A stretch of DNA of 40,147 nucleotides from the NCBI GenBank assembly GCA_027491415.1, contig JAOZFH010000020.1, positions 1 through 40,147 on the forward strand, in the 5' to 3' direction. Below the pieces are notes generated by a model, which saw only the letters and a program-made list of their open reading frames with translations, ran no database searches and had not been told where the DNA came from. The stretch's first letter is position 1. Each line of letters starts with the position of its first letter. Origin of the DNA: Thermoproteota archaeon. Its GTDB lineage: Archaea; Korarchaeota; Korarchaeia; Korarchaeales; Korarchaeaceae. Both the position numbers and the translations under genes were made by a program. This document shows, piece by piece, positions 23,326 through 38,399 of this stretch.

Positions 23326-23643
23326 CCGTCGATTCGGGGCCTCCCCCGGTATTTAAGTTGGGGCTGGGACACCCTCTCGGGTCGGTCGAGGGGGACCGGG
23401 GGGCCGCCGGCTCGGGCGGCGGCCGCGAGACTCGGCCCATCTAGATTCGCCCGAATATTCAGATCCGAGCGGGCTGGGCCGACCCGGCCATCGGACCCCG
23501 CACGAGTTCGCCGCTGGCCGGGCCACAGCGCCCTATCGTGAGGCCCGGGTCGCGAGCTCTCACCTCTTCGAAGTCCCAACGCCCCCGCCGGCCTCCTGGA
23601 CGGAGGCCGGCGGCCGTTCAGGTCTCCCCGGCGTTCCTCAGGG
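23326..23643. other. Intergenic region with terminator-like inverted repeat
   Basis: No gene is seen. CCGCCGGCCTCC at 23585-23596 pairs perfectly with GGAGGCCGGCGG at 23602-23613 across a 5-nt loop. This lies 30 nt beyond the end of the leftward repressor-peptidase operon and is probably its terminator. A second, shorter repeat (GGCCGCC / GGCGGCC) is at 23402-23424. Confidence 0.5.
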
Positions 23644-24453
23644 TCACCCCTCCGCCGGCAGCGGCGGCGCGGATTTCGGGGCGGGCGCCCCCTCCCCGGC
23701 GGACCTCCTCGCCATCTCGATGAGCCTGGCCACCCTCTCCTCCACGCCGGGGTGCCAGGAGAACGCCCTCCTCAAGGATCCAAGCCTGCCCCTCCTGTCA
23801 GACGCGGCCAGGAGGAGGCTCTTCACCGTCCACCTTACCGCCCTGGGCGACTCCGGCAGCCCTCCCCTGTAGGCCATGGCCACCTTGACGAGGGCGCTCG
23901 CCAGGTCCAAGGGCCTCCCCGAGGCCATCGCCCCCTCCTCGTCCGCCCTGAACTCCAGCCACCTGCAGACCGCGGCCCCCAGGAGGGTCCCGAGGGGTAT
24001 GTTCAGCACGCCCTCAACGGCCGCGAACACCCTGAGGAGGGGGTGCCTTCCAGCCACGTGGGCCACCTCGTGGGCCAGAACGGCACGGATCTCGTCGGGC
24101 GTGAGGAGCCTCAGCATCCCCCCAGTCACCAGGACTAGGTACTTGCCCGGGCCCAGGAAGAGCGTCAGTGAGTTCGGCTCGTCATCCCTCAGGACGCCCA
24201 GCTCCACCTCCTGGCCCGCCCCTAGCGCCGACCTCAGGGACTCCAGCTCCCTGGAGAGGCCCTCGGGCGGGGGGTCCACGAAGTCCCTCAGCTGCCCCGA
24301 GGCCAGCCTCCCGCTCAGCACGCTCCAGGCCGCCCCAGCCGCGGCGAGCGACCCCAGGAACGCGGCTGCCCAGGCGTTCCTGAAGTATAGGGCGAGGCCG
24401 ATGGTGGCGGCCAGCGGCGAGAGGGCCGCGAGCGCCCCGAGGGCGCGGGTCAC
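23644..24453 (-). CDS. M48-type membrane metallopeptidase partner of the BlaI repressor
   Basis: 269 residues. Two membrane helices open the protein (about 5-50), then a cytosolic or surface peptidase domain with zinc motif HEVAH at 128-132 and the third ligand in EFRADEEGA (Glu167, Asp171). A possible third helix covers 150-163. The order matches HtpX-like M48 peptidases. The start overlaps the BlaI stop by 4 nt (GTGA), so the two are co-translated. BlaI repressors are classically paired with a membrane metallopeptidase of family M56 (BlaR1/MecR1). Here an M48-like enzyme takes that place, so it may cleave the repressor when an inducer or membrane stress is sensed (inference). Confidence 0.85.
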   Translation of the reverse strand: MTRALGALAALSPLAATIGLALYFRNAWAAAFLGSLAAAGAAWSVLSGRLASGQLRDFVDPPPEGLSRELESLRSALGAGQEVELGVLRDDEPNSLTLFLGPGKYLVLVTGGMLRLLTPDEIRAVLAHEVAHVAGRHPLLRVFAAVEGVLNIPLGTLLGAAVCRWLEFRADEEGAMASGRPLDLASALVKVAMAYRGGLPESPRAVRWTVKSLLLAASDRRGRLGSLRRAFSWHPGVEERVARLIEMARRSAGEGAPAPKSAPPLPAEG

Positions 24454-24860
24454 CCTCGACTGCCCTCCCCCACGGAGGACCTCTCCGCCTCTATCCTCCT
24501 GAGGATCTCTCTGAGCTCCTCTGGGCTGAGGTGAACGGCTCCCTCCTCTATTAGCTTGACCAGACCGGGCCTTCCGAGCGTGTTCACCACTCTCTTGATC
24601 GCGTCCCGGGCCACGCTCCTCTCGTACTCCTCCCTGCTGACCCTGGGCCTGTAGACGTAGTACACCCCTCCCCTGCCGGTCCTGAACTCCCGCTCCACGA
24701 GTCCCTTCCCGTGAAGTCTGGAGAGCACGGTGCCGACGGTCGTGAGCGAGAGAGGCCTCTCCCGGCTCAGCTCCTCGAAGACCTCCCTGACGGTCGCCGA
24801 CCCCCTCTTGAACAGGACGTCCATGACCCTGGGCTCGAGCGGCTCCCTCCTCCTCGGCAA
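24450..24860 (-). CDS. BlaI/MecI-family winged-helix repressor
   Basis: 136 residues. The DNA-binding half is LEPRVMDVLFKRGSATVREV, with SLTTVGTVLSRLHGKGLVER and GGVYYVYRP, the canonical BlaI helix-turn-helix and wing. The C-terminal half (SREEYERSVARDAIKRVVN and LSPEELREILRRI) is the dimerisation part. TTG start with GGGGGTAGG upstream. The family binds palindromes of the TACA-n-TGTA type. Such palindromes lie in its own promoter and before the peptide genes at 28.7 kb, which supports it as regulator of the whole 24-35 kb locus. Confidence 0.92.
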   Translation of the reverse strand: MPRRREPLEPRVMDVLFKRGSATVREVFEELSRERPLSLTTVGTVLSRLHGKGLVEREFRTGRGGVYYVYRPRVSREEYERSVARDAIKRVVNTLGRPGLVKLIEEGAVHLSPEELREILRRIEAERSSVGEGSRG

Positions 24861-24871
24861 CCTACCCCCAT

Positions 24872-24924
24872 CTACGACATGATGTAAGGACGTTTAAATA
24901 TTTCCCCGCTTCTACATTGTGTAG
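24872..24924. promoter_or_regulatory. Divergent promoter with two BlaI-type operators
   Basis: A shared AT core GTTTAAATATTT at 24892-24903 serves both directions. CTACGACATGATGTAA (24872-24887) covers the repressor transcription start. CTACATTGTGTAG (24912-24924), a perfect 5-bp inverted repeat with 3-nt spacer, covers the rightward start. Both have TAC/GTA half sites as used by BlaI/MecI proteins. Confidence 0.65.
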
Positions 24925-24946
24925 TTTATTCCGCGGGGTGGTGGTG

Positions 24947-25141
24947 GTGAGCTTAGCCGAGGTGGTCAGGCTCCTGCTCCCCGTGATAGCCCTCCAAGTC
25001 GCGCTTCAAGTCTACAGCCTCTATCTGATCGTCAGGCGGTCCGAGTGGGGTCTCGGGACGAAGGTGAAGTGGTCCGTGGTCGTCATCGCCTTGGGGGTCC
25101 TCGGTGTCTTGGCGTTCCTGTTCCTGGGGAGGAGGCGGTGA
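24947..25141 (+). CDS. Small two-helix membrane protein, PLDc_N-like
   Basis: 64 residues from GTG 24947, chosen because GGGGTGG lies about 5 nt upstream and the frame before it runs through the operator. Two membrane helices (about 6-26 and 38-58) are separated by IVRRSEWGLGTKVKWS, and it ends LGRRR. This resembles the short PLDc_N family that often stands beside bacteriocin-type ABC exporters; some such short proteins are thought to give immunity. First gene of the rightward operon, 1 nt before the ATPase. Confidence 0.7.
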   Translation: MSLAEVVRLLLPVIALQVALQVYSLYLIVRRSEWGLGTKVKWSVVVIALGVLGVLAFLFLGRRR

Positions 25142-26113
25142 ATGGACGGGGGCGTCCTGGTGGAGGGTCTCGTTAAGGTCTACGGGGAGATAGAGGCCGT
25201 GAGGGACGTCTCCTTCGACGTCGAACCGGGGGAGGTGATGGGGCTACTCGGCCCCAACGGGGCCGGCAAGACCACCACCATGAGGGTACTCGCCTCCGTC
25301 ATCAGGCCAACGGCCGGCAGGGCCATAGTGAACGGGGCGGACGTTGTCAGGGAGAGGGACAGGGTCAGGAGGTCGGTGGGCTATCTCCCCGAGAGGTCGG
25401 GCCTGCCCGCGAGGATGACCGGCGAGAGGTACCTGACGATGTTCGCGAGGCTGCACGGCCTGGCGGACCCGGAGGGCAGGGCCAGGGAGGTGGCCAGGGA
25501 GCTCGGCATCTCCGACAGGTTGGGCTCCAAGTTGGGATCCCTCTCGAAGGGTCTAAAGAGGAGGGTGGCCATAGCCAGGGCCCTCGTCCACGACCCGCCC
25601 GTCCTGCTCCTGGACGAGCCCACGTCCGGCCTGGACCCAATCAGCAGGGCCCAGGTGCTGGACCTCATAGCCCGGCAGGCTGCGGAGGGGAAGGCGGTCC
25701 TGGTCTCATCCCACGTCCTGTCGGAGATGGAGAGGATCTGCACGAGGGTATGCCTCATCTCCCGGGGCAGGGTGCTCGCGCGGGGACCCCTCGACGAGGT
25801 TAGGTCCTCGGCCGGGAGGCCGGTGCTCAGGCTCAGGGCGCGGATGGCGGGAGACCTAGTTCCGCTCCTGGAGGCCGCCCTGCGGGAAGCCAGGCTCGCG
25901 GTCAGGCTAAGGGACCTGAACGGGGTCGTCGAGGTGGATCCGATAGGGGGGCCCGGCGACCTGCGGTCGGCGGCCGCGGTCGTCCTGAGGCGCCTCTTGG
26001 ATGAGGGGGTGGTGCCGGACCTGTTCGAGATCCACAGGCCGACGCTGGAGGAGGCGTTCGTGGCGCTCGTGGGGGGAGCGGCCCGTGCGGGGGATCTGGG
26101 CGCTGCTGGGTGA
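25142..26113 (+). CDS. ABC transporter ATPase 1
   Basis: 323 residues. Walker A is GPNGAGKTTTM, the signature is LSKGLKRR, Walker B is PVLLLDEPTSGLDP and the switch is SSHVL. The C-terminal ~100 residues form the extra domain of ABC-2/CcmA-type exporter ATPases. It should drive the permease encoded by the next, overlapping gene. A 73-nt stretch around Walker B (25566-25638) is base-identical to the second ATPase. Exported substrate inferred to be the modified peptides. Confidence 0.95.
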   Translation: MDGGVLVEGLVKVYGEIEAVRDVSFDVEPGEVMGLLGPNGAGKTTTMRVLASVIRPTAGRAIVNGADVVRERDRVRRSVGYLPERSGLPARMTGERYLTMFARLHGLADPEGRAREVARELGISDRLGSKLGSLSKGLKRRVAIARALVHDPPVLLLDEPTSGLDPISRAQVLDLIARQAAEGKAVLVSSHVLSEMERICTRVCLISRGRVLARGPLDEVRSSAGRPVLRLRARMAGDLVPLLEAALREARLAVRLRDLNGVVEVDPIGGPGDLRSAAAVVLRRLLDEGVVPDLFEIHRPTLEEAFVALVGGAARAGDLGAAG

Positions 26114-26837
26114 GGAGCTGAGGCTCTCGGCACAGAGGGCCGTCTGGACCGCCGCGGCCCTCTCCTTCTTCGGGATGGCCGGGGTTGCCGCACTGAAGAT
26201 GCTGCCCGAGCTGCTACCGGAGGGGGCCGTCCTTCCCGTTGAGATGACGGCCTCCGAGGCCGTCAGGGGCTACGTGAGGACCCTCTACCAGATAGGGTCC
26301 CTGGTGTCGGTCATGCTCGGGATGGACGTAGTCTCGGGGGAGGTGGAGGGTGGGACCCTTGAGCCGCTCCTCTCCGCGCCCGTGTCGGTGGGGTCCGTCT
26401 TCCTCGCCAAGCTGGCGGCCAGGCTGGCCGCCCTGGCCGCCGGGGTCGCGGCCTCCGCCGCGGTCACGTGGTGCTACGCCGTCAGCGTCTTCGGCCCCAC
26501 GGACCTGGCGAGGACCCTGGCGGCGTCGGCCTACGCCCTCCTACCCATCTCCTCGGGGGCGCTCTGCGCGGCGGGCGCCAGCGCCCTCTGTCGATCCCAG
26601 TCCTCCAGCGCCCTCCTCGGCGCAGCCGCCACCCTGGGGCTATTCGCCGCCTCCAGGGTCGGCCCCCGCTGGTTGACCCCCTTCGGTCGGGCGGAGCTGG
26701 CCTACGAGATCCTGGACGGCGGGCTGGGCGGCCTGGCCCGGCCAATCGTCGAGACCTCGCTCGCCCTGCTGATCCTCCTCGCCGCCGACCTGGCGGCGCT
26801 CCTGGCGGCCGAGAGGATGGAGAGGTGGTGGGGATGA
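26085..26837 (+). CDS. ABC-2 type permease 1
   Basis: 250 residues from GTG 26085, which has GGGGGGAG just upstream and overlaps the ATPase gene by 29 nt. About six membrane helices. The block MDVVSGEVEGGTLEPLLSAPVSV is the ABC-2 permease landmark (related to GERExGTLEpLLaaPvs). It should pair with ATPase 1 to export a peptide or lipid-like substrate. Confidence 0.9.
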   Translation: MRGIWALLGEELRLSAQRAVWTAAALSFFGMAGVAALKMLPELLPEGAVLPVEMTASEAVRGYVRTLYQIGSLVSVMLGMDVVSGEVEGGTLEPLLSAPVSVGSVFLAKLAARLAALAAGVAASAAVTWCYAVSVFGPTDLARTLAASAYALLPISSGALCAAGASALCRSQSSSALLGAAATLGLFAASRVGPRWLTPFGRAELAYEILDGGLGGLARPIVETSLALLILLAADLAALLAAERMERWWG

Positions 26838-27850
26838 TTGAGGTTAGCGGGCTCGTCAAGAGGTACGGCTCCGTCACGGCCATCGAGGGCGTGACCTTCT
26901 CGGTGGGGTCGGGGGAGGTGTTCGGCCTCCTCGGCCCCAACGGGGCCGGCAAGACCACCACCATGAGGATAATCTGCTGCGTGATACCCCCTGACGCGGG
27001 GTCCGTCGTCGTGGCGGGAGTAGACGCCCTTAGGGACCCGTCGAGGGCCAAGCAGTCCATCGGATACCTGCCCGAGGTCCCGTCGGTCTACAGCCGGCTT
27101 ACCGTCAGGGAGAACCTCGAGTTCTTCGCCAGGCTGTACGGGGTACCCGGCGGAGAGGCTGAGCCGAGGGTCTCTCGGCTCCTGAGGTTCTTCTCGCTGG
27201 AGGAAAGGGCGGATCAGCTGGCCTCGAGGCTGTCCAAGGGGCTGAGGCAGAGGCTGGCCATAGCCAGGGCCCTCGTCCACGACCCGCCCGTCCTGCTCCT
27301 GGACGAGCCCACGTCCGGCCTGGACCCGATAAGCGCCAGGGAGGTCAGGGACCTGGTGGTGAGGGTGGCCAGGGAGGAGGGGAAGACCGTCCTCCTCTCC
27401 ACTCACAACCTATTCGAGGCGGAGCAGGTCTGCGACAGGGTCGCGATAATAAGGAGGACGATCCTCGCCGTGGGGAGGCCGAGGGAACTCGCCGAGAGGG
27501 CCTCGATTAGGGTCCCGGTGAGGGTGGCCCTGGCCAACCCCTCGGAGGGGCTGGTGAGGGTGGCCCTCTCGGTCCAGGGGGTGACCTCCGCCAAGCTGGA
27601 GTCCGGAGAGCTCGTCGCGGAGCTTGAGGGGGATCCGGACTCGGTGGTGCCCGAGCTCAGCGCGGCCCTGGTCGCGGCGGGAGCCAAGATACTGTCGATC
27701 CGCCGAACCTCGTCGCTGGAGGAGGCGTTCATCTCGGTCGTCCGGGGCGGGCCGCGGGTGAGGTCCCGATCCGTCGGTGGTGGGGGGCGGGGCCCAGACG
27801 TGAACACGGGGACGGCCGAGATGTCTGGGGAGGGGGTGGTGCGGGCGTGA
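26834..27850 (+). CDS. ABC transporter ATPase 2
   Basis: 338 residues from ATG 26834, overlapping permease 1 by 4 nt. Walker A GPNGAGKTTTM, signature LSKGLRQR, Walker B PVLLLDEPTSGLDP and STHNLFEAEQV are intact. A C-terminal tail of about 30 Gly/Arg-rich residues is extra. It is paralogous to ATPase 1, and two blocks are identical at the DNA level, so the pair arose by tandem duplication with later homogenisation or strong constraint. Confidence 0.95.
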   Translation: MIEVSGLVKRYGSVTAIEGVTFSVGSGEVFGLLGPNGAGKTTTMRIICCVIPPDAGSVVVAGVDALRDPSRAKQSIGYLPEVPSVYSRLTVRENLEFFARLYGVPGGEAEPRVSRLLRFFSLEERADQLASRLSKGLRQRLAIARALVHDPPVLLLDEPTSGLDPISAREVRDLVVRVAREEGKTVLLSTHNLFEAEQVCDRVAIIRRTILAVGRPRELAERASIRVPVRVALANPSEGLVRVALSVQGVTSAKLESGELVAELEGDPDSVVPELSAALVAAGAKILSIRRTSSLEEAFISVVRGGPRVRSRSVGGGGRGPDVNTGTAEMSGEGVVRA

Positions 27851-28665
27851 TCAGGTGGTCGAGGGTTCTGTGCGTCCTGACGAAGGACTGGAGGGAGTTC
27901 TCTAGGAGCGGTTGGCTGGTCGGGACCGCCCTGGCGCTGACGGTCTACTTCGGCGTCGTCCTGCCGGCCATAATCGTGTTCGGGGCCAGGATCTCTGGCG
28001 GCGCCGTCGTCCCCATATCGATACCCGTCAGGCTCGGGGACCTGCCCCTTCCCGCGGCTCCCGAGGGGCTGGACGAGGTGGCTAGGTCTGTCTACGCGGC
28101 CTTCTCTCTGATCGTCCCCCCGCTCTTCCTGGTGATCCCCCTGGCGGTGTCGACCGTGATGGCGGCGGACAGCTTCGCCGGCGAGAGGGAGAGGGGGACT
28201 ATAGAGGTCCTCTTGGCCGCCCCGCTCACCGAGAGGGAGCTCTTCCTGGCCAAGGCCCTCGCGTCCCTGACGCCGGGTGTGGCGGCCTCCTGGGGGGCCT
28301 TCGCGCTGATGGCCCTGGCGACCAACCTGATGTCGGCTGACATGTTCGGCGGGTGGTGGTTCCCGTCCGGCCCCGAGTGGTACGTGGTCGTCGCCCTCGT
28401 GTCCCCGCTCTACGCCTTCCTCGCAATATCCCTCATAGTGCTGGCCTCCTCCAGGGCTAGGAGCGCCAGGGAGGCTCAGCAGGCGTCCGCAATACTGGTG
28501 GCGCCCATCCTGGCGGCGGTGTTCGGCCAGGTCCTCGGGGGCTTCGCGATCGGCTTGGAGCACCTCTTGATCTCAGCAGCGGTCCTGGCGGGTCTGGACG
28601 CCGGGCTCGTCGCCCTCGCGCCGGGCAGGTTCTTCTCTGGGGTGAGGTACATGAGGGTCGATTAG
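27847..28665 (+). CDS. ABC-2 type permease 2
   Basis: 272 residues, GTG start overlapping ATPase 2 by 4 nt. About six helices. The landmark DSFAGERERGTIEVLLAAPL is a perfect ABC-2 permease signature before helix 3. The first extracellular loop (about residues 45-85) is longer than in permease 1. It completes the second exporter; its end is 10 nt before the operator region of the peptide genes. Confidence 0.93.
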   Translation: MIRWSRVLCVLTKDWREFSRSGWLVGTALALTVYFGVVLPAIIVFGARISGGAVVPISIPVRLGDLPLPAAPEGLDEVARSVYAAFSLIVPPLFLVIPLAVSTVMAADSFAGERERGTIEVLLAAPLTERELFLAKALASLTPGVAASWGAFALMALATNLMSADMFGGWWFPSGPEWYVVVALVSPLYAFLAISLIVLASSRARSAREAQQASAILVAPILAAVFGQVLGGFAIGLEHLLISAAVLAGLDAGLVALAPGRFFSGVRYMRVD

Positions 28666-28674
28666 CTTGTCCAC

Positions 28675-28721
28675 TTGTAGTAGCTACTACAAATTGTAAT
28701 AATGCTTATATTATGTCGTAG
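28675..28721 (+). promoter_or_regulatory. Promoter and BlaI-type operators of the precursor-peptide genes
   Basis: TTGTAGTAGCTACTACAA at 28675-28692 is a perfect 18-bp palindrome. It overlaps TACAA-A-TTGTA at 28688-28698. A TATA-like TTATATTA at 28706-28713 follows, then ATGTCGTAG at 28713-28721, the exact complement of CTACGACAT in the repressor promoter (24872-24880). Transcription should start near 28735, just before the first peptide gene. Confidence 0.7.
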
Positions 28722-28743
28722 GTTGACCTCCCCAGGTGGGAGC

Positions 28744-28875
28744 GTGGAGGTGTCCGGGTACACTCCCCCCGCCATGCTGAACCTGACCGGGACCGGGGAT
28801 CAGGGGGTCGCCGCGGCCGTGGTCGTCGTCATAGGAATCCTCCTCATCTGGCTGGCCATCGACCTGACCCCGTGA
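28744..28875 (+). CDS. Putative RiPP precursor peptide 1 (43 aa)
   Basis: Reads VEVSGYTPPAMLNLTGTGDQ, then GVAAAVVVVIGILLIW and LAIDLTP. The leader carries Y-x-P-P-A-M and ends with DQG; the rest is hydrophobic with one Trp 30 residues after the Tyr. Start GTG 28744 follows AGGTGGG; GTG 28750 or TTG 28723 are possible. The first of five related ORFs in a row on the same strand, just downstream of the operator. Without a modifying context it would look like a single-helix membrane peptide; the following maturation genes argue for a precursor. Confidence 0.7.
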   Translation: MEVSGYTPPAMLNLTGTGDQGVAAAVVVVIGILLIWLAIDLTP

Positions 28876-28895
28876 GCCAAGCGAGGTGAGGGGAC

Positions 28896-29018
28896 TTGAG
28901 GACCTACACTCCACCAGCGCTGCTGAGCCTCTCTGGAGCGGTGGATCAGGGCGCGGTGGCGGCTGCCGTGGCCGTCATAGCGGCGGTGGCCCTGTGGCTC
29001 TGGCTCTGGGTCTACTGA
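28896..29018 (+). CDS. Putative RiPP precursor peptide 2 (40 aa)
   Basis: Reads MRTYTPPALLSLSGAVDQGA, then VAAAVAVIAAVALW and LWLWVY. TTG start with GAGGTGAG about 6 nt upstream. The leader Y-x-P-P-A-L followed by DQG aligns without gaps with peptide 1, and the Trp 30 residues after Tyr is conserved. The C-terminus alternates Trp (W-L-W-L-W-V-Y), the clearest candidate for side-chain crosslinking. Confidence 0.75.
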   Translation: MRTYTPPALLSLSGAVDQGAVAAAVAVIAAVALWLWLWVY

Positions 29019-29044
29019 TGACGCGTACACCGGGGTGAAGTCCA

Positions 29045-29173
29045 GTGAGGGCCTACTCGCCTCCGACGATGCTGAACATAACGACCTCCGCGAACGTGGG
29101 CCTCGTGACGCCCACCGTGGCGGTGATCATCCAGGCGCTGGTGTGGGTCTACGTCTGGGTCTGGGCGACCTGA
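29045..29173 (+). CDS. Putative RiPP precursor peptide 3 (42 aa)
   Basis: Reads MRAYSPPTMLNITTSANVGL, then VTPTVAVIIQALVW and VYVWVWAT. GTG start, with GGGGTGAAG upstream. It has the same Y-x-P-P-T-M leader, NVG in place of DQG, and Trp exactly 30 residues after Tyr, with alternating W/Y/W/W at the end. It does not overlap its neighbours; each peptide has its own ribosome site. Confidence 0.75.
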   Translation: MRAYSPPTMLNITTSANVGLVTPTVAVIIQALVWVYVWVWAT

Positions 29174-29188
29174 GGGAGGCTCAAACGC

Positions 29189-29332
29189 ATGGAGCGCCGC
29201 GCATACGCACCTCCCGCCATGCTCAACGCGATGTCCGACGGACGGGACCTTGGAGCAGTCATTCTCATGCCCATCCTCATAGCGATAGTGATCATCTGGG
29301 TGCTCGGGCAGGACTGGGGGGAGACCTCCTGA
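29189..29332 (+). CDS. Putative RiPP precursor peptide 4 (47 aa)
   Basis: Reads MERRAYAPPAMLNAMSDGRD, then LGAVILMPILIAIVIIW and VLGQDWGETS. ATG start, with GAGGGAGG about 12 nt upstream. Leader Y-x-P-P-A-M and DLG are conserved; the Trp falls 31 residues after Tyr. Its end differs from the others (polar, second Trp six residues later), so the family varies mainly at the C-terminus, as expected of a core peptide. Confidence 0.75.
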   Translation: MERRAYAPPAMLNAMSDGRDLGAVILMPILIAIVIIWVLGQDWGETS

Positions 29333-29355
29333 GCCCTGCCTGGGAGGTGAGGTGG

Positions 29356-29485
29356 GTGGAGAGGAAGTACGTCCCTCCGGCCCTCATGTCCATTAATGGA
29401 GGAGAAGGCGAAGACGGTCGTGATAGTGGCCCTGCTGGTCTGGCTCTGGGTCAAGGTCTTCGACCCCAAGGCGGCGGGAGTCTGA
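29356..29485 (+). pseudogene. Putative RiPP precursor peptide 5, frameshifted
   Basis: GTG 29356, after GAGGTGAGG, reads VERKYVPPALMSIN with the same leader motif. The frame then leaves the expected hydrophobic part. One base later, from ATG 29396, the other frame reads MEEKAKTVVIVALLVWLWVK and ends VFDPKAAGV at 29483-29485. Removing one A from ATTAATGG would join them. Either a real frameshift, a consensus error, or two very short ORFs. The [DN]-x-G turn is missing, and the spacing from Tyr to the first Trp is about six residues shorter than in the other peptides. Confidence 0.6.
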
Positions 29486-29504
29486 TCCCTCGGGGGGCCC
29501 GGCC

Positions 29505-30934
29505 TTGGCCCTGGAGCCACGGACTCCAGTGCGGCTTAGAAACCCCAAGAGGCTTCGCAAAGAGGCTTTCGGCGGCCTCTACATGGACCTCCCCCACTCT
29601 CTTTTTTTGATATTTAACGAGACGGGTTATCTGATCCTGAGGGAGGTCTCGGGGGGCTCCACTCCCGAGCAGGTCGCGGCCGCCCTGGCCGCCAGGTTCC
29701 CCCAGGAGGACCCGGACCTCATAATGGGGTCGGTAATCCGGTTCCTCGAGCAGGCCGCTGCGGCCGGCCTGGTGACGTTGGGGGACTCCCCCGAGACTCT
29801 TGGCGGCGCCGGACCCGCACCCGGCTCGATCGAACCAGCGCAGGCAGAAGGGGGCAGAGAGGGCCCCTCAGAGTACGCCAAGTCGATCCTCGATTCGCCC
29901 TACGTGCTGGGCGTCGAGCCGAACGTGCTGTCGGCCCCTCTCAAGGTCCTGATAGAGGTGACGAGGAGGTGCAACCTCAGGTGCCTCCACTGCTACGCGC
30001 GGAGCGGAGACACGGGCTCCGAGGAGATGGAGACCGAGGAGATGAAGTCCCTGCTCGAGGATCTGGTGGACTCGGGGGTCAACTACTTCGTCATATCCGG
30101 TGGGGAGCCTCTTGTCAGGAAGGACCTGTTTGAGCTCCTGGAGCACGTGGCGAGGCTCGGGGCTGAGGCGTCCCTGCTGACCAACGCCACCCTCATCGAC
30201 AGGGAGAGGGCGGCCCGGCTCAGGGACCTCGGGGTGCTGAAGGTGGAGGCCAACCTGGACTCCGCCAGGCCGGAGGTCTACGACAGGTTCCGGGGCGTTC
30301 CAGGCGCCTTCGAGATGACCGTCAGGGGAGTGAGGGCGCTGGTGGAGGAGGGCGTTCCCACGAGGCTGAACGTGACGGTGACGCGCATGAACGTGGGAGA
30401 GCTGGAGGACATCGTGGAGGCTGCCGTGGAACTCGGGGTGAGGGAGGTCGCCTTCGTCGAGCTAAAGCCCTCGGGCAGGGGGCTGGACAACTACTCGAAG
30501 CTCGCCCTCGGCCCGGAAGAGAGGGCGGAGGTGGGCAGGAGGCTGAGGGAACTCTCCAAGAGGTCAGGGGGAGGGCCCTGATCCTTGGCGGGAGCAGGGA
30601 GGACCTGGACATGGTCGACCCACACGGCGTCCTCCCGCTGTGCGGGGCCGGCAAGCTCCACTGCTCCATCACGCCGTGGGGCGACGTCAAGCCATGCGCC
30701 TTCCTCCCAGACGACCCCGCCTGCATCGCCGGCAGCGTCAGGGAGAGGAGCCTGCTGGAGATCTGGCAGAACTCCCCCCTGTTCAGCGCCTTCAGGAGGC
30801 TCGGGAATCCGATCTGCGAGGCCTGCGGCGACGCCAGGTGCGCGGGCGGGTGCAGGGTCCGGGTCTACGCCGCCACGGGATCGCTGGGTGGGGCCCCCGA
30901 CCCGAAGTGCTCCAGACTTGCCCCGGCGGGGTGA
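29505..30934 (+). pseudogene. RRE (PqqD-like) - radical SAM - SPASM peptide maturase, one-base frameshift
   Basis: The first frame (29505-30581) has a PqqD-like RRE domain at about residues 10-92. The radical SAM motif CNLRCLHC follows (Cys156, Cys160, Cys163), then ISGGEPLVRKD. It stops at 30579-30581. The second frame carries ALILGGSREDLDMVDPHG, then the SPASM cysteines (LHCSITPWGDVKPC and ICEACGDARCAGGC plus PKC). A run of five G at 30567-30571 with one G added would join SGGRALILGG exactly. Joined, the protein is about 476 residues. The family installs crosslinks or other carbon-centred changes on precursor peptides bound by the RRE. The start may instead be GTG 29529. Function depends on whether the frameshift is real, programmed or an error. 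Confidence 0.85.
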
Positions 30935-30941
30935 TGTGGAG

Positions 30942-31478
30942 ATGGAGGTAGAGGGGCTGTCCTACCCGCCTTCCGGCGAGGTGAGGGTTAGGAGGCTCTC
31001 GGAGGAGGACGACCTAACCCCTGCCTTCAGGCTGATGATGTCCCTCGACTACGGGGTCCCGGAAGAGGCGGTGACCGCGCTCTTCCCGTCGCCCAGCGCG
31101 GTTCAGGCCAGGGTGAAGATGGGCCTGGTCTCGGTGTACGTGGCCGAGGCGGACGGCGACGGGGAGCCCGTTGGCGTGGCGGTCGTCATCTCGACCCCCC
31201 AGTCGTACAACAGAGACCAGAGGGTCGTGGCCCTCGTAGGCGTCAGGCCCGGTCACAGGAGGAGGGGGGTAGGGACCACCCTCCTGAGGGCCGTGATCGA
31301 AGACTCGAGGAGGGAGGGGGTGAAGAAGCTGGTGGCGCAGGTCCCGGTTCAGAACAAGGCCTCAGCCGCCCTGTTCCTGAAGAACGACTTCAGGTTCGAG
31401 TCCTACCTGAGGGACGCCTACGGCATGGGCAGGGACTCCTACGTCATGGCCCTGAGGCTGGGAGGTGACGGCGCTTGA
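30942..31478 (+). CDS. GNAT N-acetyltransferase
   Basis: 178 residues from ATG 30942 (GTG 30936 also possible). The acetyl-CoA site reads VVALVGVRPGHRRRGVGTTL (Q/RxxGxG/A type loop), followed by the helix LLRAVIEDSRREGVKK and the strand VAQVPVQNKASAALFLKNDF, a standard GNAT motif B. Placed between the two radical SAM genes and overlapping the second by 4 nt, it belongs to the locus. A role in acetylating the finished peptide (self-protection or N-capping) is an inference. Confidence 0.88.
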   Translation: MEVEGLSYPPSGEVRVRRLSEEDDLTPAFRLMMSLDYGVPEEAVTALFPSPSAVQARVKMGLVSVYVAEADGDGEPVGVAVVISTPQSYNRDQRVVALVGVRPGHRRRGVGTTLLRAVIEDSRREGVKKLVAQVPVQNKASAALFLKNDFRFESYLRDAYGMGRDSYVMALRLGGDGA

Positions 31479-32560
31479 CGGCGGAGCCCCAGTTCACCCT
31501 CGACCTCTACTCCCCGGACTTCAGCTTCTTCAAGGCGGTCCCGAGGGGGGAGGCCGAGGCCCTCTTGAGGGAGTGGAGGGGCCTGCAGGTCCTCCCGAGG
31601 CGCCTCAGGTCTCCTCTATTTGTGCTCTGGGAGACGACCTACCGCTGCAATCTGAACTGCTCTTTCTGCTACAACAGGTCCCCCCGAAGGGTGAGTGAGC
31701 TCACCTCCAGGGAGGCCATGTCCCTCATTTCCGAGCTGGCGGACACGCTCAGGCCGTTCAGCGTCTGCGTGAGTGGGGGGGAGCCCACGCTCCGCCCCGA
31801 CTACCTGAAGATCCTCGCGTCCCTCCACGCCGCCGGGATCACCGTGGCCACCATAACCAACGGCTGGACCATGAGCGAGGAGCTCGCCTCCGGGATAGCG
31901 AGCCACGCACACACGGCCCAGGTGAGCCTGGACGGCCCCAGGCCCGAGGTCCACGACGCGATCAGGGGGAGGAGGGGGGCGTTCGAGAGGGCCTTGAACG
32001 CCCTCAGGCTCCTGAGGGGGGCTGGAATAGCCGAGCTCTCCCTCTCCTTCGTGGCGACGAGGGAGAACATACGAGACTTCCCGGACATGGTGGACCTGGC
32101 CAGGAGGTACGAGGTCGACCGGCTCAGGGTCCAGCCGGTGGTCCCCACGGGGCGGGGCGACCTGGAGTCGGTACCCACCCCCGAGCAGCTGAGGTGGCTC
32201 GAGGGGTTCCTCGAGCGCGAGGTCGAGGGGGCGGCCGAGGAGGGGCTGAGGATAGAGTACGGCGACCCCGCCCACCACATAAGGGCCGGCCTGCTGATCG
32301 GCCTCACCCTCGCCATGAACATCACGGCGGACGGGCACGTGGGATTCACCCCATACTTCCCGTTCTCGTGCGGGAACGTCAGGAGGCATCCAATCCACTG
32401 GATATGGACCGAGAGGGTCTCGAAGGCCTGGAGGCACCCGGTGGTGAGGTCCGAGCTCTCAAAGGTGAGGACGGTCTACGACTTCTACAAGGTCTCGGGG
32501 GCGAGCAGCAGGGAGCCCGTCCCCCTCGACGGCTGGGATGAGGTGGGCCTGGGGGAGTGA
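31475..32560 (+). CDS. Radical SAM peptide-maturase-like protein without SPASM cysteines
   Basis: 361 residues, TTG start overlapping the GNAT gene. The motif CNLNCSFC (Cys58, Cys62, Cys65) and SGGEPTLRPDY (101-111) are intact, with ITNGWTMSEEL and VSLDGPRPEVHDAIRG typical of the MoaA/PqqE-like branch. The C-terminal region, where a SPASM domain would be, holds a single Cys (FSCGNVRRHP), so no auxiliary clusters are expected. It has no fused RRE; the stand-alone RRE encoded next could serve it. A second, different modification of the peptide is the likeliest role. Confidence 0.88.
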   Translation: MTAEPQFTLDLYSPDFSFFKAVPRGEAEALLREWRGLQVLPRRLRSPLFVLWETTYRCNLNCSFCYNRSPRRVSELTSREAMSLISELADTLRPFSVCVSGGEPTLRPDYLKILASLHAAGITVATITNGWTMSEELASGIASHAHTAQVSLDGPRPEVHDAIRGRRGAFERALNALRLLRGAGIAELSLSFVATRENIRDFPDMVDLARRYEVDRLRVQPVVPTGRGDLESVPTPEQLRWLEGFLEREVEGAAEEGLRIEYGDPAHHIRAGLLIGLTLAMNITADGHVGFTPYFPFSCGNVRRHPIHWIWTERVSKAWRHPVVRSELSKVRTVYDFYKVSGASSREPVPLDGWDEVGLGE

Positions 32561-32573
32561 GGGGGTGTTGCCG

Positions 32574-32882
32574 GTGAGGAGCGTGGAGGTATCGGACGAC
32601 GCCGTGCCGGTCAGGGAGCCCGTGTCTTGGAGGTGGGACGGCGAGACTATGGAGCACATCGTCCTCTCCGTCCCCAAGACCAAGAACATCTACATACTCA
32701 ACCCGACGGCCGCCCTCGTGTTCTACCTATGCAACGGCCACAACACGGTATCTGATATAGCCGAGACCGTCGCGAAGAGGTTCGGGGCCGACTACCGGGT
32801 GGTCGTCAGACACGTCAGGGACTTCGTGGGGAGGCTGGTCGAGATGGGCGTGGTCTCACTCCATGGAGAGGGGGATGTGTGA
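32574..32882 (+). CDS. Stand-alone PqqD-like RRE protein
   Basis: About 102 residues. IYILNPTAALVFYLCNGHNT followed by VSDIAETVAKRFG and VRHVRDFVGRLVEMGVV is the PqqD winged-helix pattern. The family binds the leader of RiPP precursors and presents them to the modifying enzyme. GTG 32574 is chosen for its G-rich ribosome site about 7 nt upstream; GTG 32565 or ATG 32538 are alternatives. It overlaps the tldD-like gene by 4 nt (GTGA), so it is co-translated with the protease. Confidence 0.85.
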   Translation: MRSVEVSDDAVPVREPVSWRWDGETMEHIVLSVPKTKNIYILNPTAALVFYLCNGHNTVSDIAETVAKRFGADYRVVVRHVRDFVGRLVEMGVVSLHGEGDV

Positions 32883-34267
32883 GCAAACCCGTTGCCGCCC
32901 GCTCCTGCCGGGGGTCACCCATGGCGGGCGCCTCCCTCGCAGCCTTGGGCGAGGCCGCAGACCTCGTCTCCAGGGCCATCAGAGAGTCCGACTTTGCCGA
33001 GCTGGTGTCGGTCAGGGAGGAGACCCTCAGGATCTCTTCTGCCCCCGACGGATCCATTTTGGAGGATCTCTCGGTGAGGGAGCGCATCCTCGTGAAGGCG
33101 CGGGTGCGCGGCTCCTGGCTCTCGGCCACGCTCCCAGCCTCCACCCTCCCCGGGCTCCTAGAGTCTCTGAGTGAGGCGACGCCCTCCGCAGAGGCTGAGA
33201 GACTCATACTCCCTCGAATGGGTCGGGGTGTCGAGTTCGGCAACTTCTCACCGGAGGAGGATGCGGGCTACCTCTGGGAGGTCGTGACGGCTCTGGCAGG
33301 CGGGCCGGACAGCCTATCGGCCTCGTGCACGCTGAGGTCCATATCCGTCAGGAACTCCCTGGGGGTGGGGGCGGAGACCTCGGAGATCGAGACAGCGGTG
33401 GTGGCCTTCTGGCACTCCAGTGAGAACTGGTTCAGGCCGGCCGACGAGGAGGTTCTGGGCGGCTGGGCCAGGCCGAGGGACCTGGTCCGGAGCCTCGTCG
33501 AGGGTGCCGAGTCGGTCAGGTCTGCGCGGGAGGAGGGTCGAGGGGGCCTCAGGATCGTGGATCCCCCGAGGGGCGCCCCCATCGCGCTGGCCCCGAGGGC
33601 GGCCGGCACCCTCGTGCACGAACTCCTCCAACACGGGCTCGAGGGAGACGCGGTCGCGGGGGGGAGGTCTTACCTGTCGGGCATGCTGGGGGGGAGGGTG
33701 GCCCCCGAGCTGCTCACCGTGCGCTCCGGGCCCCCCCACCCGGGCTGGAGGGTCGATCACGAGGGCGTGGCCGTCGAAGAGGCGAAGCTCGTCTCCGAGG
33801 GGGTGGTCACCTCCTACCTGACCGACGTGGAGTCGGCGATCCGCCTAGGCCTGCCCCCCATCGGGTGCGGGAGGTCGGCGGGCGACGACCCACCGTCCCC
33901 GAGGGCCACGGCCCTCTCGGTGGAGCCGGTAGACGGAGGGCCGGACCTGGATGAGATGGCCTCCGAGTTCGAGACGCTCCTGCTGGTCGACAGGGCCTCA
34001 GGGGGCTCCACAGATCCTTCGAGCGGCGAGTTCAGGATCTCAGCCCCGTCTGCCCTTGTGCTCAGACGGGGTTATCCCACGGGTGTGACCCCCGCCATCT
34101 GGCTGGAGGGGAGCTGCGCCTCGGTCCTCAGGGGGCTCTTGGGCCTGGGCGGCCGCTCTGAGGAGTTCGTTACCCTATGCGCCAAGGGAGGAGGGACCGT
34201 GCTCACCAGGATCTCCAGCCCGCCCGCCGCGATCTCTGGGGAGGTGGTGCGGGTCGTCCTCGCCTGA
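32879..34267 (+). CDS. TldD-like metalloprotease subunit
   Basis: 462 residues. The zinc motif HELLQHGLEGD matches the TldD signature HExxxHxxxxD (His247, Glu248, His252, Asp257). The third ligand region is VTLCAKGG (Cys434). TldD is the catalytic half of the TldD/TldE protease, known to trim linear leader fragments in microcin B17 maturation. It lies next to a TldE-like gene, so a dimer is expected that removes leaders from the modified peptides (inference). GTG start. The N-terminal 20 residues before the first helix are atypical. Confidence 0.92.
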   Translation: MSKPVAARSCRGSPMAGASLAALGEAADLVSRAIRESDFAELVSVREETLRISSAPDGSILEDLSVRERILVKARVRGSWLSATLPASTLPGLLESLSEATPSAEAERLILPRMGRGVEFGNFSPEEDAGYLWEVVTALAGGPDSLSASCTLRSISVRNSLGVGAETSEIETAVVAFWHSSENWFRPADEEVLGGWARPRDLVRSLVEGAESVRSAREEGRGGLRIVDPPRGAPIALAPRAAGTLVHELLQHGLEGDAVAGGRSYLSGMLGGRVAPELLTVRSGPPHPGWRVDHEGVAVEEAKLVSEGVVTSYLTDVESAIRLGLPPIGCGRSAGDDPPSPRATALSVEPVDGGPDLDEMASEFETLLLVDRASGGSTDPSSGEFRISAPSALVLRRGYPTGVTPAIWLEGSCASVLRGLLGLGGRSEEFVTLCAKGGGTVLTRISSPPAAISGEVVRVVLA

Positions 34268-34310
34268 CTCGGCCCTCAATAAGGGAGAGCGAGAGCACCC
34301 CGGAGACCTT

Positions 34311-35606
34311 CTGGACGGGCTCACTGGGCTGGTCGAGAGGGCCGTCGAGATCGCCCTAGGGTCGGGCGCCGAGGCCGCCGAGTGCTTCGCTGAGAGGAGG
34401 CTGGAGTCCCTGTACAGGCCGGGCCGCCCGCCGAGGCTGAGGGTCAGAGAGGGCCTCTCCCTCAGGGTGATCTTCGGGGGGAGGGTGCACTTCGCCTCCG
34501 CCTCCCTGGGGGGCTCCGACTCGGACAGCCTGACCCGGGTCCGCCGGGCCCTGGAGTACGCGGCCTCAGCGGGGACGAGGGGAGGGCGAGAGTGGCCCAG
34601 GGAGTTCTCCCCGATGTCCGGGAGCCTCCCGAGCGTGAGGACCGCGGACCCAGCCATACTGGACGCCTCGGCGGGCGAGGGGGGCACCGCCCTGGACGAG
34701 CTGGCTTCCAGACTTGGCGGCGGGGGCGAGGGGCCGACCCTGCTGGCCTCCTCCCGCGAGGTGGCCCTGGCCACGGACGCCGGGCCGATCCTGGCGGAGG
34801 TGAGGACCAGGTCCCTGGCACTGATCCACCTGGAGTCCCGGGGGCGGGCGGCCACCCTGGTCAGGGACGGGTGGAGCCTCTCAAATCTGTTGAAGGGGAT
34901 CGACGACCTGTCTCGGGAGCTCGAGGAGGTCGGAAGGGCGGAGTGGAGGCCGGCGGCCGTCTGGAGGTCGAGCCCCCGTCGGATCGTCCTCACCCCCTAC
35001 GCCCTGACCGGCCTGAGGGACCTCCTCTACCCAGTGCTCGACCCCGACCTGTCCCCGAGGTTAGACGTGCCCATCTGCGAAGTGAGGCTCGCCGAGGGGC
35101 TCTCCTTGGTCGACGACCCTGCATATCCGGGTGGCGTCCGGAGGGCGTTCGACGACGAGGGCACGCCCTCGACCCCCGTGAAGGTCCTCGACCACCGCGG
35201 CGCGAGGCAGCTCCTCACGCTGGCCAAGGCCCAGGCGAGGTCTGCCCGACCCACGGGGAGCTCAGTCAGACCGACCTACTCATCGAGGCCCTTGGCATTC
35301 CCATCCAACCTGGTCCTCACGTCGTCGGGCCGAGAGGACCCCGTGGAGCCTGAGACCGGCGCCCCGAGGCTCAGGGTCTTGGAGGGGGCCGCGGTCGGCG
35401 GGGTGGAGGCCGGGAGGCTGGAGGTGGGCGTGACGCTGGCCGTCCTCGAGGGGGAGCAGGAGACGCTGGTCGGGGGGTTCAAGCTCGTCTCGAGCTTCAG
35501 AGAGTTCTTCTCAGAGGTTCGTCCGGTGGGGCGGGAAGTGGTGGGCTGCTACGGCTTCTACTCCCCAGAGCTCGCGGTCCCGGCGCGGGCGGTCAGGCTG
35601 GAGTGA
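34311..35606 (+). CDS. TldE/PmbA-like protease subunit, 5' end unclear
   Basis: The frame reads GLVERAVEIALGSGAEAAEC and continues FAERRLESLYRPGRPPRLRV into LRVIFGGRVHFASASLGG, which aligns with the N-terminal domain of PmbA/TldE. That domain starts well before the only standard start in frame, GTG 34467. Upstream of it no ATG, GTG or TTG exists in frame; CTG codons at 34311 and 34329 are the candidates, or an indel hides the real start. The given start is therefore provisional. No HExxxH motif, as expected of the non-catalytic TldE partner. C-terminal blocks EGAAVGGVEAGRLEVGVTLA and GGFKLVSSFREFFSEVRPVG fit the family. Confidence 0.82.
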   Translation: MDGLTGLVERAVEIALGSGAEAAECFAERRLESLYRPGRPPRLRVREGLSLRVIFGGRVHFASASLGGSDSDSLTRVRRALEYAASAGTRGGREWPREFSPMSGSLPSVRTADPAILDASAGEGGTALDELASRLGGGGEGPTLLASSREVALATDAGPILAEVRTRSLALIHLESRGRAATLVRDGWSLSNLLKGIDDLSRELEEVGRAEWRPAAVWRSSPRRIVLTPYALTGLRDLLYPVLDPDLSPRLDVPICEVRLAEGLSLVDDPAYPGGVRRAFDDEGTPSTPVKVLDHRGARQLLTLAKAQARSARPTGSSVRPTYSSRPLAFPSNLVLTSSGREDPVEPETGAPRLRVLEGAAVGGVEAGRLEVGVTLAVLEGEQETLVGGFKLVSSFREFFSEVRPVGREVVGCYGFYSPELAVPARAVRLE

Positions 35607-36411: not shown

Positions 36412-37138
36412 GTTTCAACCCTGCCGCAAGACAAGAAAAGAAAGGGCCAATCTAATTCTTTAAAGGAATTTCCGGCCTCGTCGTTGCAAGAGGAACCTTC
36501 AACCCCGCCGCATTAGGCGGCAAATCTGCTTCTGGCCGCGGCCTGGGCCGGGTACAGGCCGAGGTCGAGCTTTCAACCCTGCCGCAAGAAGCGGCCAATC
36601 TGCTTCCCCGCTCGTCGCTCAGGAGTCTGGCGGGTTCCAGCGGGCTCTTTCAACCCTGCCGCAAGAAGCGGCCAATCTGCTTCGTGTGGGCAATAACGGG
36701 CTTCCTGTTCGGGCACGAGGTCGCTTTCAACCCTGCCGCAAGAAGCGGCCAATCTGCTTCGTCCGTGGGAGGACACAAAGAACACGGAGGGTTGAAAACT
36801 TTCAACCCTGCCGCAAGAAGCGGCCAATCTGCTTCCTGTAGGGCACGGTAGTAGTAGCGTAAAGCCTCGTAGATCTTTCAACCCTGCCGCAAGAAGCGGC
36901 CAATCTGCTTCGCGCAAGACTGCACCACGGCAGCGGAAGCATCGTGCAGCACTTTCAACCCTGCCGCAAGAAGCGGCCAATCTGCTTCGTACGCTCAGGC
37001 GGCCCAGGAGTGGGAGAGATACTACCTTTCAACCCTGCCGCAAGAAGCGGCCAATCTGCTTCACGCGATCCACGTGAACCGCTTCAGCTCTTCCACATTC
37101 TCTTTCAACCCTGCCGCAAGAAGCGGCCAATCTGCTTC
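36412..37138 (-). CRISPR. CRISPR array: 8 perfect and 2 degenerate 37-nt repeats, read leftward
   Basis: Perfect repeats start at 36570, 36647, 36724, 36799, 36875, 36952, 37026 and 37102, each 37 nt. Spacers between them are 37-40 nt. On the transcribed (minus) strand the repeat begins GAAGCAGATTGGCCGCTTCT and ends TGCGGCAGGGTTGAAAG. It contains a 5-bp stem GCCGC/GCGGC with loop TTCTT and ends GTTGAAAG, the usual 8-nt crRNA handle. A variant repeat at 36496-36532 keeps the stem but has a changed loop. A further one at about 36412-36458 is split by a short insertion. Degenerate copies at the left end mark the old, leader-distal side, so the leader is on the right. The likely processing enzyme is Cas6 at 5.1-6.0 kb. 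Confidence 0.97.
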
Positions 37139-37579: not shown

Positions 37580-38368
37580 CTAAACCATGCGCAGGGCGAG
37601 CCATGACCCCAACAGGGCCAAGGGGATCGTCGGCACCAGGAACCAAGGTGAGCCCAGCAGGGAGTCGAACGGGACGGCCAGGGCGATTGAGATGAGCGCC
37701 AGCGCCCTCTCGGGCCAGGTGGTCCGGACCTTCAGCCTGGACGCCGTCGGCAGGAACACGACCCTCCTCGCTGACTCGTGGATGTAGTAGGCCCTGAGGC
37801 CGCTCTCCGCCGCCAGCACCGAGAGGGCGGCCACCTCGGCCTTGAAGCCGCCCGTCAGGTTGAGGACAACGTCGCCGAACCTGTCCACCAGCGACTTCAC
37901 CGCCGACCTGAGGTTCTCCAGCGCCGACTCGTAGTCCCCGGACTGGAACCCCCTAACGGTGTGCACCGACACCGCGAGGCCCCTCTCCCTGAGGAACCTG
38001 GCCAGGACCTCGGCCGTGAGGGTCCCGGACGCCGTGTCGGAGGCTATCAGGTGGACCTCCGAGATGAGGTCGGCCGCGCGGTCGAGGTCCGCTCCCCTCT
38101 CGGCCAGGTAGGCGCCGAGGGCATTCAGCTCGGCGCACGCCCGCCGAGGGTCTCGCTCGGCGTACTCGAGCAGGCGATCCTCCAGCCCCATCCTCGCCGA
38201 CCCGCCGAGGGACGAGACGGCCCGCTCAGTCGTCCTGGGATTTGTCATCTCCCTCACGACGGCCTCGTCGAGGCCAAGGTCCAGGGAGCCGGCCAGGTGG
38301 GCCCTGGCGGCGTTGGTCAGGAGGCTTACCCCGCAGGTCACCGCGTGAACCTCTCTCCCGGACGCCAT
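37580..38368 (-). CDS. CARF-domain protein of the Sso1393/APE2256 ring-nuclease-like family with C-terminal membrane hairpin
   Basis: 262 residues from ATG 38368, which lies about 25 nt after a TATA box (38393-38399), so it is leaderless. The CARF fold shows VTCGVSLLTNAAR near the start (Ser15), HLIASDTASGTLTAEVLARF (107-126), VVLNLTGGFKAEVAALSVLA (167-186) with Lys176, and RAYYIHE. Ser15 and Lys176 sit where characterised Crn1 ring nucleases (Sso2081) use Ser11 and Lys168, as I recall them. After residue 218 the usual C-terminal domain is replaced by two hydrophobic helices (about 220-239 and 241-259). No HEPN RNase motif is seen. It may degrade cyclic oligoadenylate at the membrane, or be a membrane effector triggered by it. 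Confidence 0.85.
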   Translation of the reverse strand: MASGREVHAVTCGVSLLTNAARAHLAGSLDLGLDEAVVREMTNPRTTERAVSSLGGSARMGLEDRLLEYAERDPRRACAELNALGAYLAERGADLDRAADLISEVHLIASDTASGTLTAEVLARFLRERGLAVSVHTVRGFQSGDYESALENLRSAVKSLVDRFGDVVLNLTGGFKAEVAALSVLAAESGLRAYYIHESARRVVFLPTASRLKVRTTWPERALALISIALAVPFDSLLGSPWFLVPTIPLALLGSWLALRMV

Positions 38369-38392
38369 CGCCGCGCCCGCCCTCGGCCTGAT

Positions 38393-38399
38393 AAAACGC
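38393..38399 (-). promoter_or_regulatory. TATA box of the CARF-membrane gene
   Basis: Minus-strand GTTTTATC, about 25-30 nt before the ATG, is the only AT-rich island in this GC-rich gap. Confidence 0.55.

What the first reader, a model, noticed from the sequence alone, without database searches (positions are those of the whole stretch)
28744..29485. Five tandem precursor peptides with a fixed frame: Y, PP, [DN]xG and a Trp 30 residues after the Tyr
All five carry Y-x-P-P-[AT]-[ML]. Four have [DN]-x-G 13-14 residues after the Tyr begins the motif's end, and their first Trp falls 30, 30, 30 and 31 residues after the Tyr. C-termini differ and alternate Trp with aliphatic residues (WLWLWVY, VWVYVWVWAT). 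Conservation in the leader with variation in the core is the mark of precursor families. The even spacing of the Trp suggests it is a modification site; the exact chemistry (for example a C-C crosslink) is speculation.
Basis: partly seen in the sequence, partly recalled or inferred. Interest (0 to 1): 0.9.

Follow-up and report, generated by a model that had tools for sequence, protein, structure and literature searches.

The report
Archaeal modified-peptide cluster, Trp-rich hydrophobic cores
An archaeon carries five tandem genes for very hydrophobic, tryptophan-rich peptides beside the enzymes, proteases, exporters and repressor of a peptide-antibiotic-type pathway; the peptides resemble no described family, and two end in the alternating Trp/aliphatic pattern of the channel antibiotic gramicidin.

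Summary
Five tandem Y-x-P-P-[AT]-[ML] peptides are present; in the four intact ones the first Trp falls 30, 30, 30 and 31 residues after the Tyr. The fifth is frameshifted in this assembly. The leader motif is the [Y/W]xxPx[L/V/I/A/F/Y] motif bound by PqqD-type RiPP recognition elements. Two PqqD domains follow directly, with two radical-SAM enzymes, a GNAT acetyltransferase and an active-site-intact TldD/TldE pair. Upstream lie two ABC exporters and a BlaI/MecI-type repressor with an M48 protease. One palindromic operator (TACNACANNNTGTAA) occurs only twice in the 1.78-Mb genome: before the first precursor and in the repressor/exporter promoter. A sister species with 97% identical exporters has lost everything from the precursors into tldE, keeping a decayed tldE stump. 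This is therefore a RiPP locus. The precursor family was not found in about 500 other archaeal genomes. Two cores end in aromatics alternating with aliphatics in the same register, as gramicidin's Trp residues do, far beyond chance. I propose a membrane-active, exported, gene-encoded peptide. Whether the radical-SAM step makes D-residues (gramicidin-like) or Trp crosslinks cannot be decided from sequence. The first radical-SAM gene is also frameshifted, so the pathway may be decaying or the assembly wrong.

The parts
28744..28875 (+). Precursor P1, GTG start: MEVSGYTPPAMLNLTGTGDQGVAAAVVVVIGILLIWLAIDLTP
28896..29018 (+). Precursor P2, TTG start: MRTYTPPALLSLSGAVDQGAVAAAVAVIAAVALWLWLWVY (alternating aromatic C-terminus)
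29045..29173 (+). Precursor P3, GTG start: MRAYSPPTMLNITTSANVGLVTPTVAVIIQALVWVYVWVWAT (alternating aromatic C-terminus)
29189..29332 (+). Precursor P4, ATG start: MERRAYAPPAMLNAMSDGRDLGAVILMPILIAIVIIWVLGQDWGETS
29356..29485 (+). Precursor P5, frameshifted: leader MERKYVPPALMSI in one frame, C-terminus ...VVIVALLVWLWVKVFDPKAAGV in another
28675..28701 (.). Operator-like site before P1: perfect 18-bp palindrome TTGTAGTAGCTACTACAA (28675-28692) overlapping TACTACAAATTGTAATA (28685-28701); AT-rich TATA-like stretch follows near 28706
24873..24923 (.). Matching operator sites in the divergent repressor/exporter promoter: TACGACATGATGTAA (24873-24887) and TACATTGTGTA (24913-24923)
29505..30581 (+). 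Radical-SAM maturase 1, PqqD (RRE) domain plus radical-SAM domain; frame breaks before the SPASM domain
   Evidence: Pfam PF05402 and PF04055; frame break
30611..30934 (+). SPASM domain of radical-SAM 1 (listed ORF from ATG; the frame is open further upstream), different frame
   Evidence: PF13186, TIGR04085
30942..31478 (+). GNAT acetyltransferase
   Evidence: PF00583 8.7e-14; start chosen by inspection
31475..32560 (+). Radical-SAM maturase 2: CxxxCxxC at 58/62/65; only two other Cys (98, 299), so no SPASM auxiliary-cluster set
   Evidence: PF04055 2e-26; nearest NCBIfam is the mycofactocin maturase, below cut-off; weak model, nearest solved folds SuiB and SkfB
32538..32882 (+). Discrete PqqD-type RRE
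   Evidence: PF05402 2.7e-11; weak NCBIfam matches to PqqD and lasso PqqD
32879..34267 (+). TldD-like metalloprotease with HExxxH (HELLQH) and the Cys that aligns with a Cys near the end of E. coli TldD
   Evidence: PF19289 2e-34; alignment to 5nj5_A
34269..35606 (+). TldE/PmbA-like partner without HExxxH (first ATG/GTG/TTG at 34467, but the frame is open and homology-like from about 34269)
   Evidence: PF19289 1.1e-11
24947..25141 (+). Small two-helix membrane protein, PLDc_N domain, first of the exporter operon; possible immunity protein
   Evidence: PF13396 at its cut-off
25142..26113 (+). ABC transporter ATPase 1
   Evidence: PF00005 2.3e-32
26001..26837 (+). ABC-2 permease 1 (ORF; true start probably near 26085)
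   Evidence: PF12679
26834..27850 (+). ABC transporter ATPase 2
   Evidence: start located; ABC ATPase sequence
27847..28665 (+). ABC-2 permease 2
   Evidence: PF12679 5.8e-14
24450..24860 (-). BlaI/MecI-type repressor
   Evidence: PF03965 2.3e-21
23644..24453 (-). M48 (HtpX-like) membrane protease beside the repressor, a BlaR1-like sensor-protease candidate
   Evidence: NCBIfam HtpX models

Best explanation
This is a radical-SAM RiPP gene cluster in an archaeon. Shown by sequence: five tandem precursors with a common leader, the RRE domains, maturases, protease pair, exporters, repressor and shared operator sites. Inferred mechanism: the PqqD domains bind the YxPPx[LM] leader; one or both radical-SAM enzymes modify the hydrophobic, Trp-rich core downstream of [DN]xG; TldD/E nibbles the leader from the N-terminus until the modified or folded core stops it; the GNAT may cap the new N-terminus; the ABC systems (with the PLDc_N protein) export the peptide and/or protect the producer. 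The BlaI-type repressor, cleared by the M48 protease, switches precursors and exporters together. The product is most likely a small membrane-active peptide used against competitors. The modification is either Trp-centred crosslinking or epimerisation; neither is shown.
For: Five-fold tandem motif, about 0.1 expected, matching the RRE-bound [Y/W]xxPx[L/V/I/A/F/Y] leader motif of lasso and PQQ precursors (PMC13381572). PqqD, radical-SAM, SPASM and GNAT domains directly downstream. TldD active-site motif intact; TldD/E is an established RiPP leader peptidase that stops at modifications (PMC10885120). Operator TACNACANNNTGTAA occurs only at the two promoters of this locus in 1.78 Mb; BlaI/MecI bind TACA/TGTA and BlaI is controlled by proteases (PMC7253601). 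The sister species lacks window 28662-34896, keeps a disrupted tldE remnant, and keeps intact exporters, repressor and M48, with dN/dS 0.17-0.50. Biosynthesis was lost as one block while exporters and repressor stayed, as expected of a producer turned immune non-producer.
Against: No product or expression data. P5 and radical-SAM 1 are frameshifted in the assembly, so the cluster could be decaying. No precursor homolog elsewhere, so leader/core constraint rests on four paralogs. The dN/dS values cover a short divergence (dS about 0.03-0.07). The operator pattern was written from the two sites it then found. Export, immunity and antagonism are inferred from gene content only.
Confidence: 0.82

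Rival explanations
1. Gene-encoded gramicidin-like channel: radical-SAM 2 epimerises alternate residues of the core to D, so the all-hydrophobic peptide folds as a beta-helix ion channel with Trp/Tyr at the membrane interface; GNAT caps the N-terminus as formyl does in gramicidin.
For: P2 and P3 have aromatics at +30, +32, +34 and +36 (W,W,W,Y and W,Y,W,W) separated by aliphatics; i/i+2 aromatic pairs not reached in 200,000 shuffles of both tails (4e-4 if only the last 10 residues are shuffled), and all five tails keep their aromatics on one parity, p about 9e-4. Gramicidin A is an all-hydrophobic, N-capped 15-mer with Trp at 9, 11, 13 and 15 (PMC7531004). Radical-SAM epimerases with a Cys hydrogen donor exist (YydG, PoyD; PMC5808125); radical-SAM 2 has two Cys (98, 299) outside its cluster motif.
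Against: P1 and P4 do not continue the alternation. The alternation is coded by near-repeats of YTC-TGG hexamers, so DNA slippage could have made it. The YydG model matches radical-SAM 2 only weakly through the general radical-SAM core. The AlphaFold model is unreliable around Cys299. P2 and P3 are related, not independent.
Confidence: 0.13
2. Cyclophane/C-C crosslink RiPP: the maturase joins the conserved +30 Trp to a nearby residue, as in streptide, darobactin or triceptides.
For: Trp at +30/+31 is invariant in the intact precursors; P5 has a W-x-K; radical-SAM 2 is nearest in fold to SuiB, a Lys-Trp crosslinking enzyme, and SkfB; radical-SAM 1 and its SPASM domain match WgkB, and the SPASM domain also DynA, below cut-off.
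Against: No fixed X3 residue after the Trp (A, W, Y, L); fold hits reflect the shared barrel and the model is weak (pLDDT 57).
Confidence: 0.35
3. Small membrane proteins or unmodified hydrophobic peptides (for example toxin-like single-helix proteins) that lie by chance beside radical-SAM genes.
For: Each has a hydrophobic stretch long enough for one membrane helix (read); no homologs show leader conservation.
Against: YxPPx[LM] repeated five times next to two RRE domains, with the shared operator and joint loss.
Confidence: 0.06
4. The cluster is a decaying remnant that no longer makes a product.
For: Frameshifts in P5 and radical-SAM 1; no ATG/GTG/TTG at the expected tldE start; the sister has lost the block.
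Against: Radical-SAM 2, PqqD and TldD, P1-P4 and the exporters are open; the homologous radical-SAM gene of the second cluster is broken in the sister's assembly but open here, so GC-rich assembly error is plausible.
Confidence: 0.25

Closest known systems
Lasso-peptide and PQQ RRE/leader systems
   Same: YxxPx[L/M]-type leader motif and discrete PqqD-type RRE
   Different: no lasso cyclase or transglutaminase-like protease found; cores have no lasso or PQQ signature; two radical-SAM enzymes
Mycofactocin (MftA/B/C)
   Same: PqqD-type RRE plus radical-SAM; radical-SAM 2 and the SPASM domain score best against MftC among NCBIfam models; P2 ends in Val-Tyr as MftA does (MftA from memory)
   Different: scores far below cut-off (136 and 55 bits against 265); five precursors with other C-termini; TldD/E
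Epipeptides (YydF/YydG) and proteusins (PoyD)
   Same: radical-SAM maturase, hydrophobic core, ABC transporter
   Different: different leader; YydG model only weakly matched; YydG reported with two [4Fe-4S] clusters
Microcin B17 / TldD-TldE leader processing
   Same: TldD with HExxxH plus inactive TldE-like partner
   Different: here a dedicated pair inside the cluster; no azole chemistry
Gramicidin A
   Same: all-hydrophobic, alternating Trp/aliphatic C-terminus
   Different: made by non-ribosomal synthetase; resemblance is in pattern only
Streptide/darobactin/triceptide radical-SAM RiPPs
   Same: radical-SAM/SPASM and Trp-rich core
   Different: no recognised crosslink motif shared by all cores

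Membership tests
RiPP cluster with RRE-dependent radical-SAM maturase | short precursors with shared leader and differing C-termini next to the enzymes | tested here: met
RiPP cluster with RRE-dependent radical-SAM maturase | RRE (PqqD) domain | tested here: met
   two PF05402 matches above cut-off
RiPP cluster with RRE-dependent radical-SAM maturase | intact radical-SAM maturase | tested here: inconclusive
   radical-SAM 2 open with CxxxCxxC; radical-SAM 1 frameshifted
RiPP cluster with RRE-dependent radical-SAM maturase | modified peptide product | not testable with these tools
   needs mass spectrometry
TldD/TldE (M103) leader peptidase | HExxxH and C-terminal Cys in TldD; partner without motif | tested here: met
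   HELLQH and aligned Cys; no HExxxH in the partner by reading its translation
Lasso peptide | lasso cyclase and transglutaminase-like leader peptidase in the cluster | tested here: not met
   not among the Pfam/NCBIfam matches of the cluster genes
Mycofactocin | MftC above curated cut-off | tested here: not met
   best 135.9 bits against 265
Epipeptide (YydG) | epimerase above TIGR04078 cut-off | tested here: not met
   21-30 bits against 300
Gramicidin-like D/L beta-helix peptide | alternating D-residues | not testable with these tools
   only the side-chain pattern was tested
BlaI/MecI-controlled regulon | repressor gene plus TACA/TGTA palindromes at both promoters | tested here: met
   binding itself not tested

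The most novel reading that the evidence does not exclude
A ribosomally encoded, archaeal counterpart of gramicidin: radical-SAM epimerisation turns a genetically encoded, alternating Trp/aliphatic peptide into a D,L beta-helix ion channel.
Probability: 0.13. Interest if true: 0.92.

Novelty: new variant of a known kind. Interest (0 to 1): 0.62.

Why it matters
A 2025 survey calls functional characterisation of archaeal RiPP clusters limited (PMC12144867). This locus adds a precursor family with no detected relatives, a dedicated TldD/E pair inside a radical-SAM cluster, a predicted repressor/operator circuit, and a natural deletion in a sister species that separates biosynthesis from export/immunity. 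If the core is epimerised, it would show that a gramicidin-type channel can be made from a ribosomal template by a compact gene set.

Tried and rejected
Precursor homologs: none in the phylum (29 genomes), a 394-genome archaeal sample or two further phyla (120 genomes); weak hits (E at least 0.005) are partial or inside long frames. PHROGs, NCBIfam and Pfam give nothing for the precursors. Forty regions around PqqD and TldD hits in relatives held no convincing YxPP precursor, but revealed other radical-SAM peptide clusters. The genome-contig scan found one unrelated Omnitrophota radical-SAM; viral scans gave only distant ones. The AlphaFold model of radical-SAM 2 was too poor past residue 264 to test a hydrogen-donor Cys. 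Lasso, mycofactocin and epipeptide membership were tested and rejected. Literature searches for TldD with archaeal radical-SAM RiPPs and for gramicidin-like RiPPs found nothing in the held library. TldD relatives on plasmids matched only the catalytic half, at about 24-34% identity.

Full report
What is there. Four intact short ORFs (P1-P4) and one frameshifted one (P5) lie head to tail at 28744-29485. All start with a Y-x-P-P-[AT]-[ML] leader, and each start codon follows a purine-rich Shine-Dalgarno-like stretch. The motif occurs nowhere else in the six-frame translation of the window, where about 0.1 would be expected. The stated spacings are correct: Trp at +30, +30, +30 and +31. In the paralog alignment Tyr, both Pro, the Leu, the Gly, one Ile and the Trp are invariant, while the C-terminal tails differ. 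P5 has its leader in one frame and its hydrophobic end in another.

Genome context. The genome is archaeal by its small-subunit rRNA. Downstream, on the same strand: PqqD plus radical-SAM, broken by a frame change before its SPASM domain; a GNAT; a second radical-SAM enzyme; a discrete PqqD; a TldD-like protease; a TldE-like partner. TldD keeps HExxxH and the aligned C-terminal-region Cys of E. coli TldD. Upstream: a PLDc_N membrane protein and two ABC ATPase/permease pairs, and divergently a BlaI/MecI-type repressor with an M48 protease.

Regulation. A perfect 18-bp palindrome and an overlapping TACA/TGTA-type site lie about 43-70 bases before P1. TACNACANNNTGTAA occurs only twice in the whole genome: before P1 and in the repressor/exporter divergent promoter. 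The sister genome keeps only the latter. The pattern was written from the two sites, so its exact significance is not a fair p-value, but the reversed control pattern has no match and the looser TACANNNTGTA also falls only in these two promoters within the window. BlaI/MecI proteins are reported to bind TACA/TGTA, and BlaI to be controlled by proteases. One repressor controlling precursors and exporters is therefore a good inference, not a shown fact.

A natural deletion. The only other genome of the genus has 97% identical DNA over 23632-28661. It then jumps, with a few bases of overlap, to a remnant of tldE (34897 onward, with a second internal deletion and disrupted frames). Precursors, maturases, RRE and TldD are gone; exporters, repressor and M48 remain open, with dN/dS 0.17-0.50 at short divergence. 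Because a degraded stump remains, loss in the sister is a better reading than gain here. Keeping exporters after losing the product is what an immunity function would predict.

Mechanism. The leader motif is the known RRE-binding motif of lasso and PQQ precursors, so recruitment by the PqqD domains is the best-supported step. TldD/E proteases cut leaders progressively until modified residues block entry; a pair inside the cluster fits a core that becomes resistant once modified. The order of steps, the role of GNAT and the target are inferred.

The core pattern. P2 and P3 carry aromatics at +30, +32, +34 and +36 with aliphatics between, although W/Y and L/V have been exchanged; P5 shows the same habit. 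This many i/i+2 aromatic pairs was not reached in 200,000 shuffles of the P2 and P3 tails; with only the last ten residues shuffled p is 4e-4. Gramicidin A has Trp at 9, 11, 13 and 15 in an all-hydrophobic capped peptide that forms a beta-helix channel through alternating D and L residues. Radical-SAM enzymes can make D-residues in ribosomal peptides. Hence the novel case. Against it: P1 and P4 do not follow, the alternation is coded by near-repeated hexamers that slippage could create, and neither radical-SAM enzyme belongs to the YydG family. The structural model was too weak to test a donor Cys. A Trp crosslink remains at least as likely; the nearest solved fold is SuiB, but only at the level of the shared barrel.

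Distribution. No relative of the precursors was found in 29 genomes of the phylum, a 394-genome archaeal sample that overlaps it, or 120 genomes of two other phyla. Absence in these sets does not show absence elsewhere.

Caveats. Two frame breaks in about 1.3 kb mean either assembly error or decay. The homologous radical-SAM gene of a second cluster is open in this genome but broken in the sister's assembly, so GC-rich assembly error is plausible; this cannot be settled here.

Noticed in passing
G000:C1 (L093 9402-9835 and following) and G001:C1 (L094): A second radical-SAM peptide cluster in both species: two small Cys-containing peptides ending CSACCLAGGGGTLIA and PCAFCCLLAGGGTLIT, followed by a PqqD/radical-SAM enzyme and an ABC transporter; the enzyme frame is broken in the sister's assembly.
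   Followed up: partly
L072 5139-5468, 5496-6917, 6922-7830, 7916-9486: In a distant archaeon, two YVxPE-leader peptides with conserved Cys cores beside a PqqD/radical-SAM enzyme, a likely acetyltransferase and an ABC exporter: similar gene content, different core.
   Followed up: partly
36483-37138: CRISPR array, at least nine repeats at 74-77-base spacing; a Cas_APE2256-family gene at 37580-38530(-) and Cas6 at 5141-5968(-).
   Followed up: partly
24947-25141: Small two-helix PLDc_N membrane protein at the head of the exporter operon, possibly immunity.
   Followed up: no
34264-34467: tldE has no ATG, GTG or TTG at the expected start although the frame reads as a TldE-like N-terminus; CTG or another start, or an error, is possible.
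   Followed up: no
L118 1498-2317: The 16S rRNA match covers only the first part of the archaeal model (positions 1-802 of 1478); the gene may be interrupted, or the locus simply ends there.
   Followed up: no
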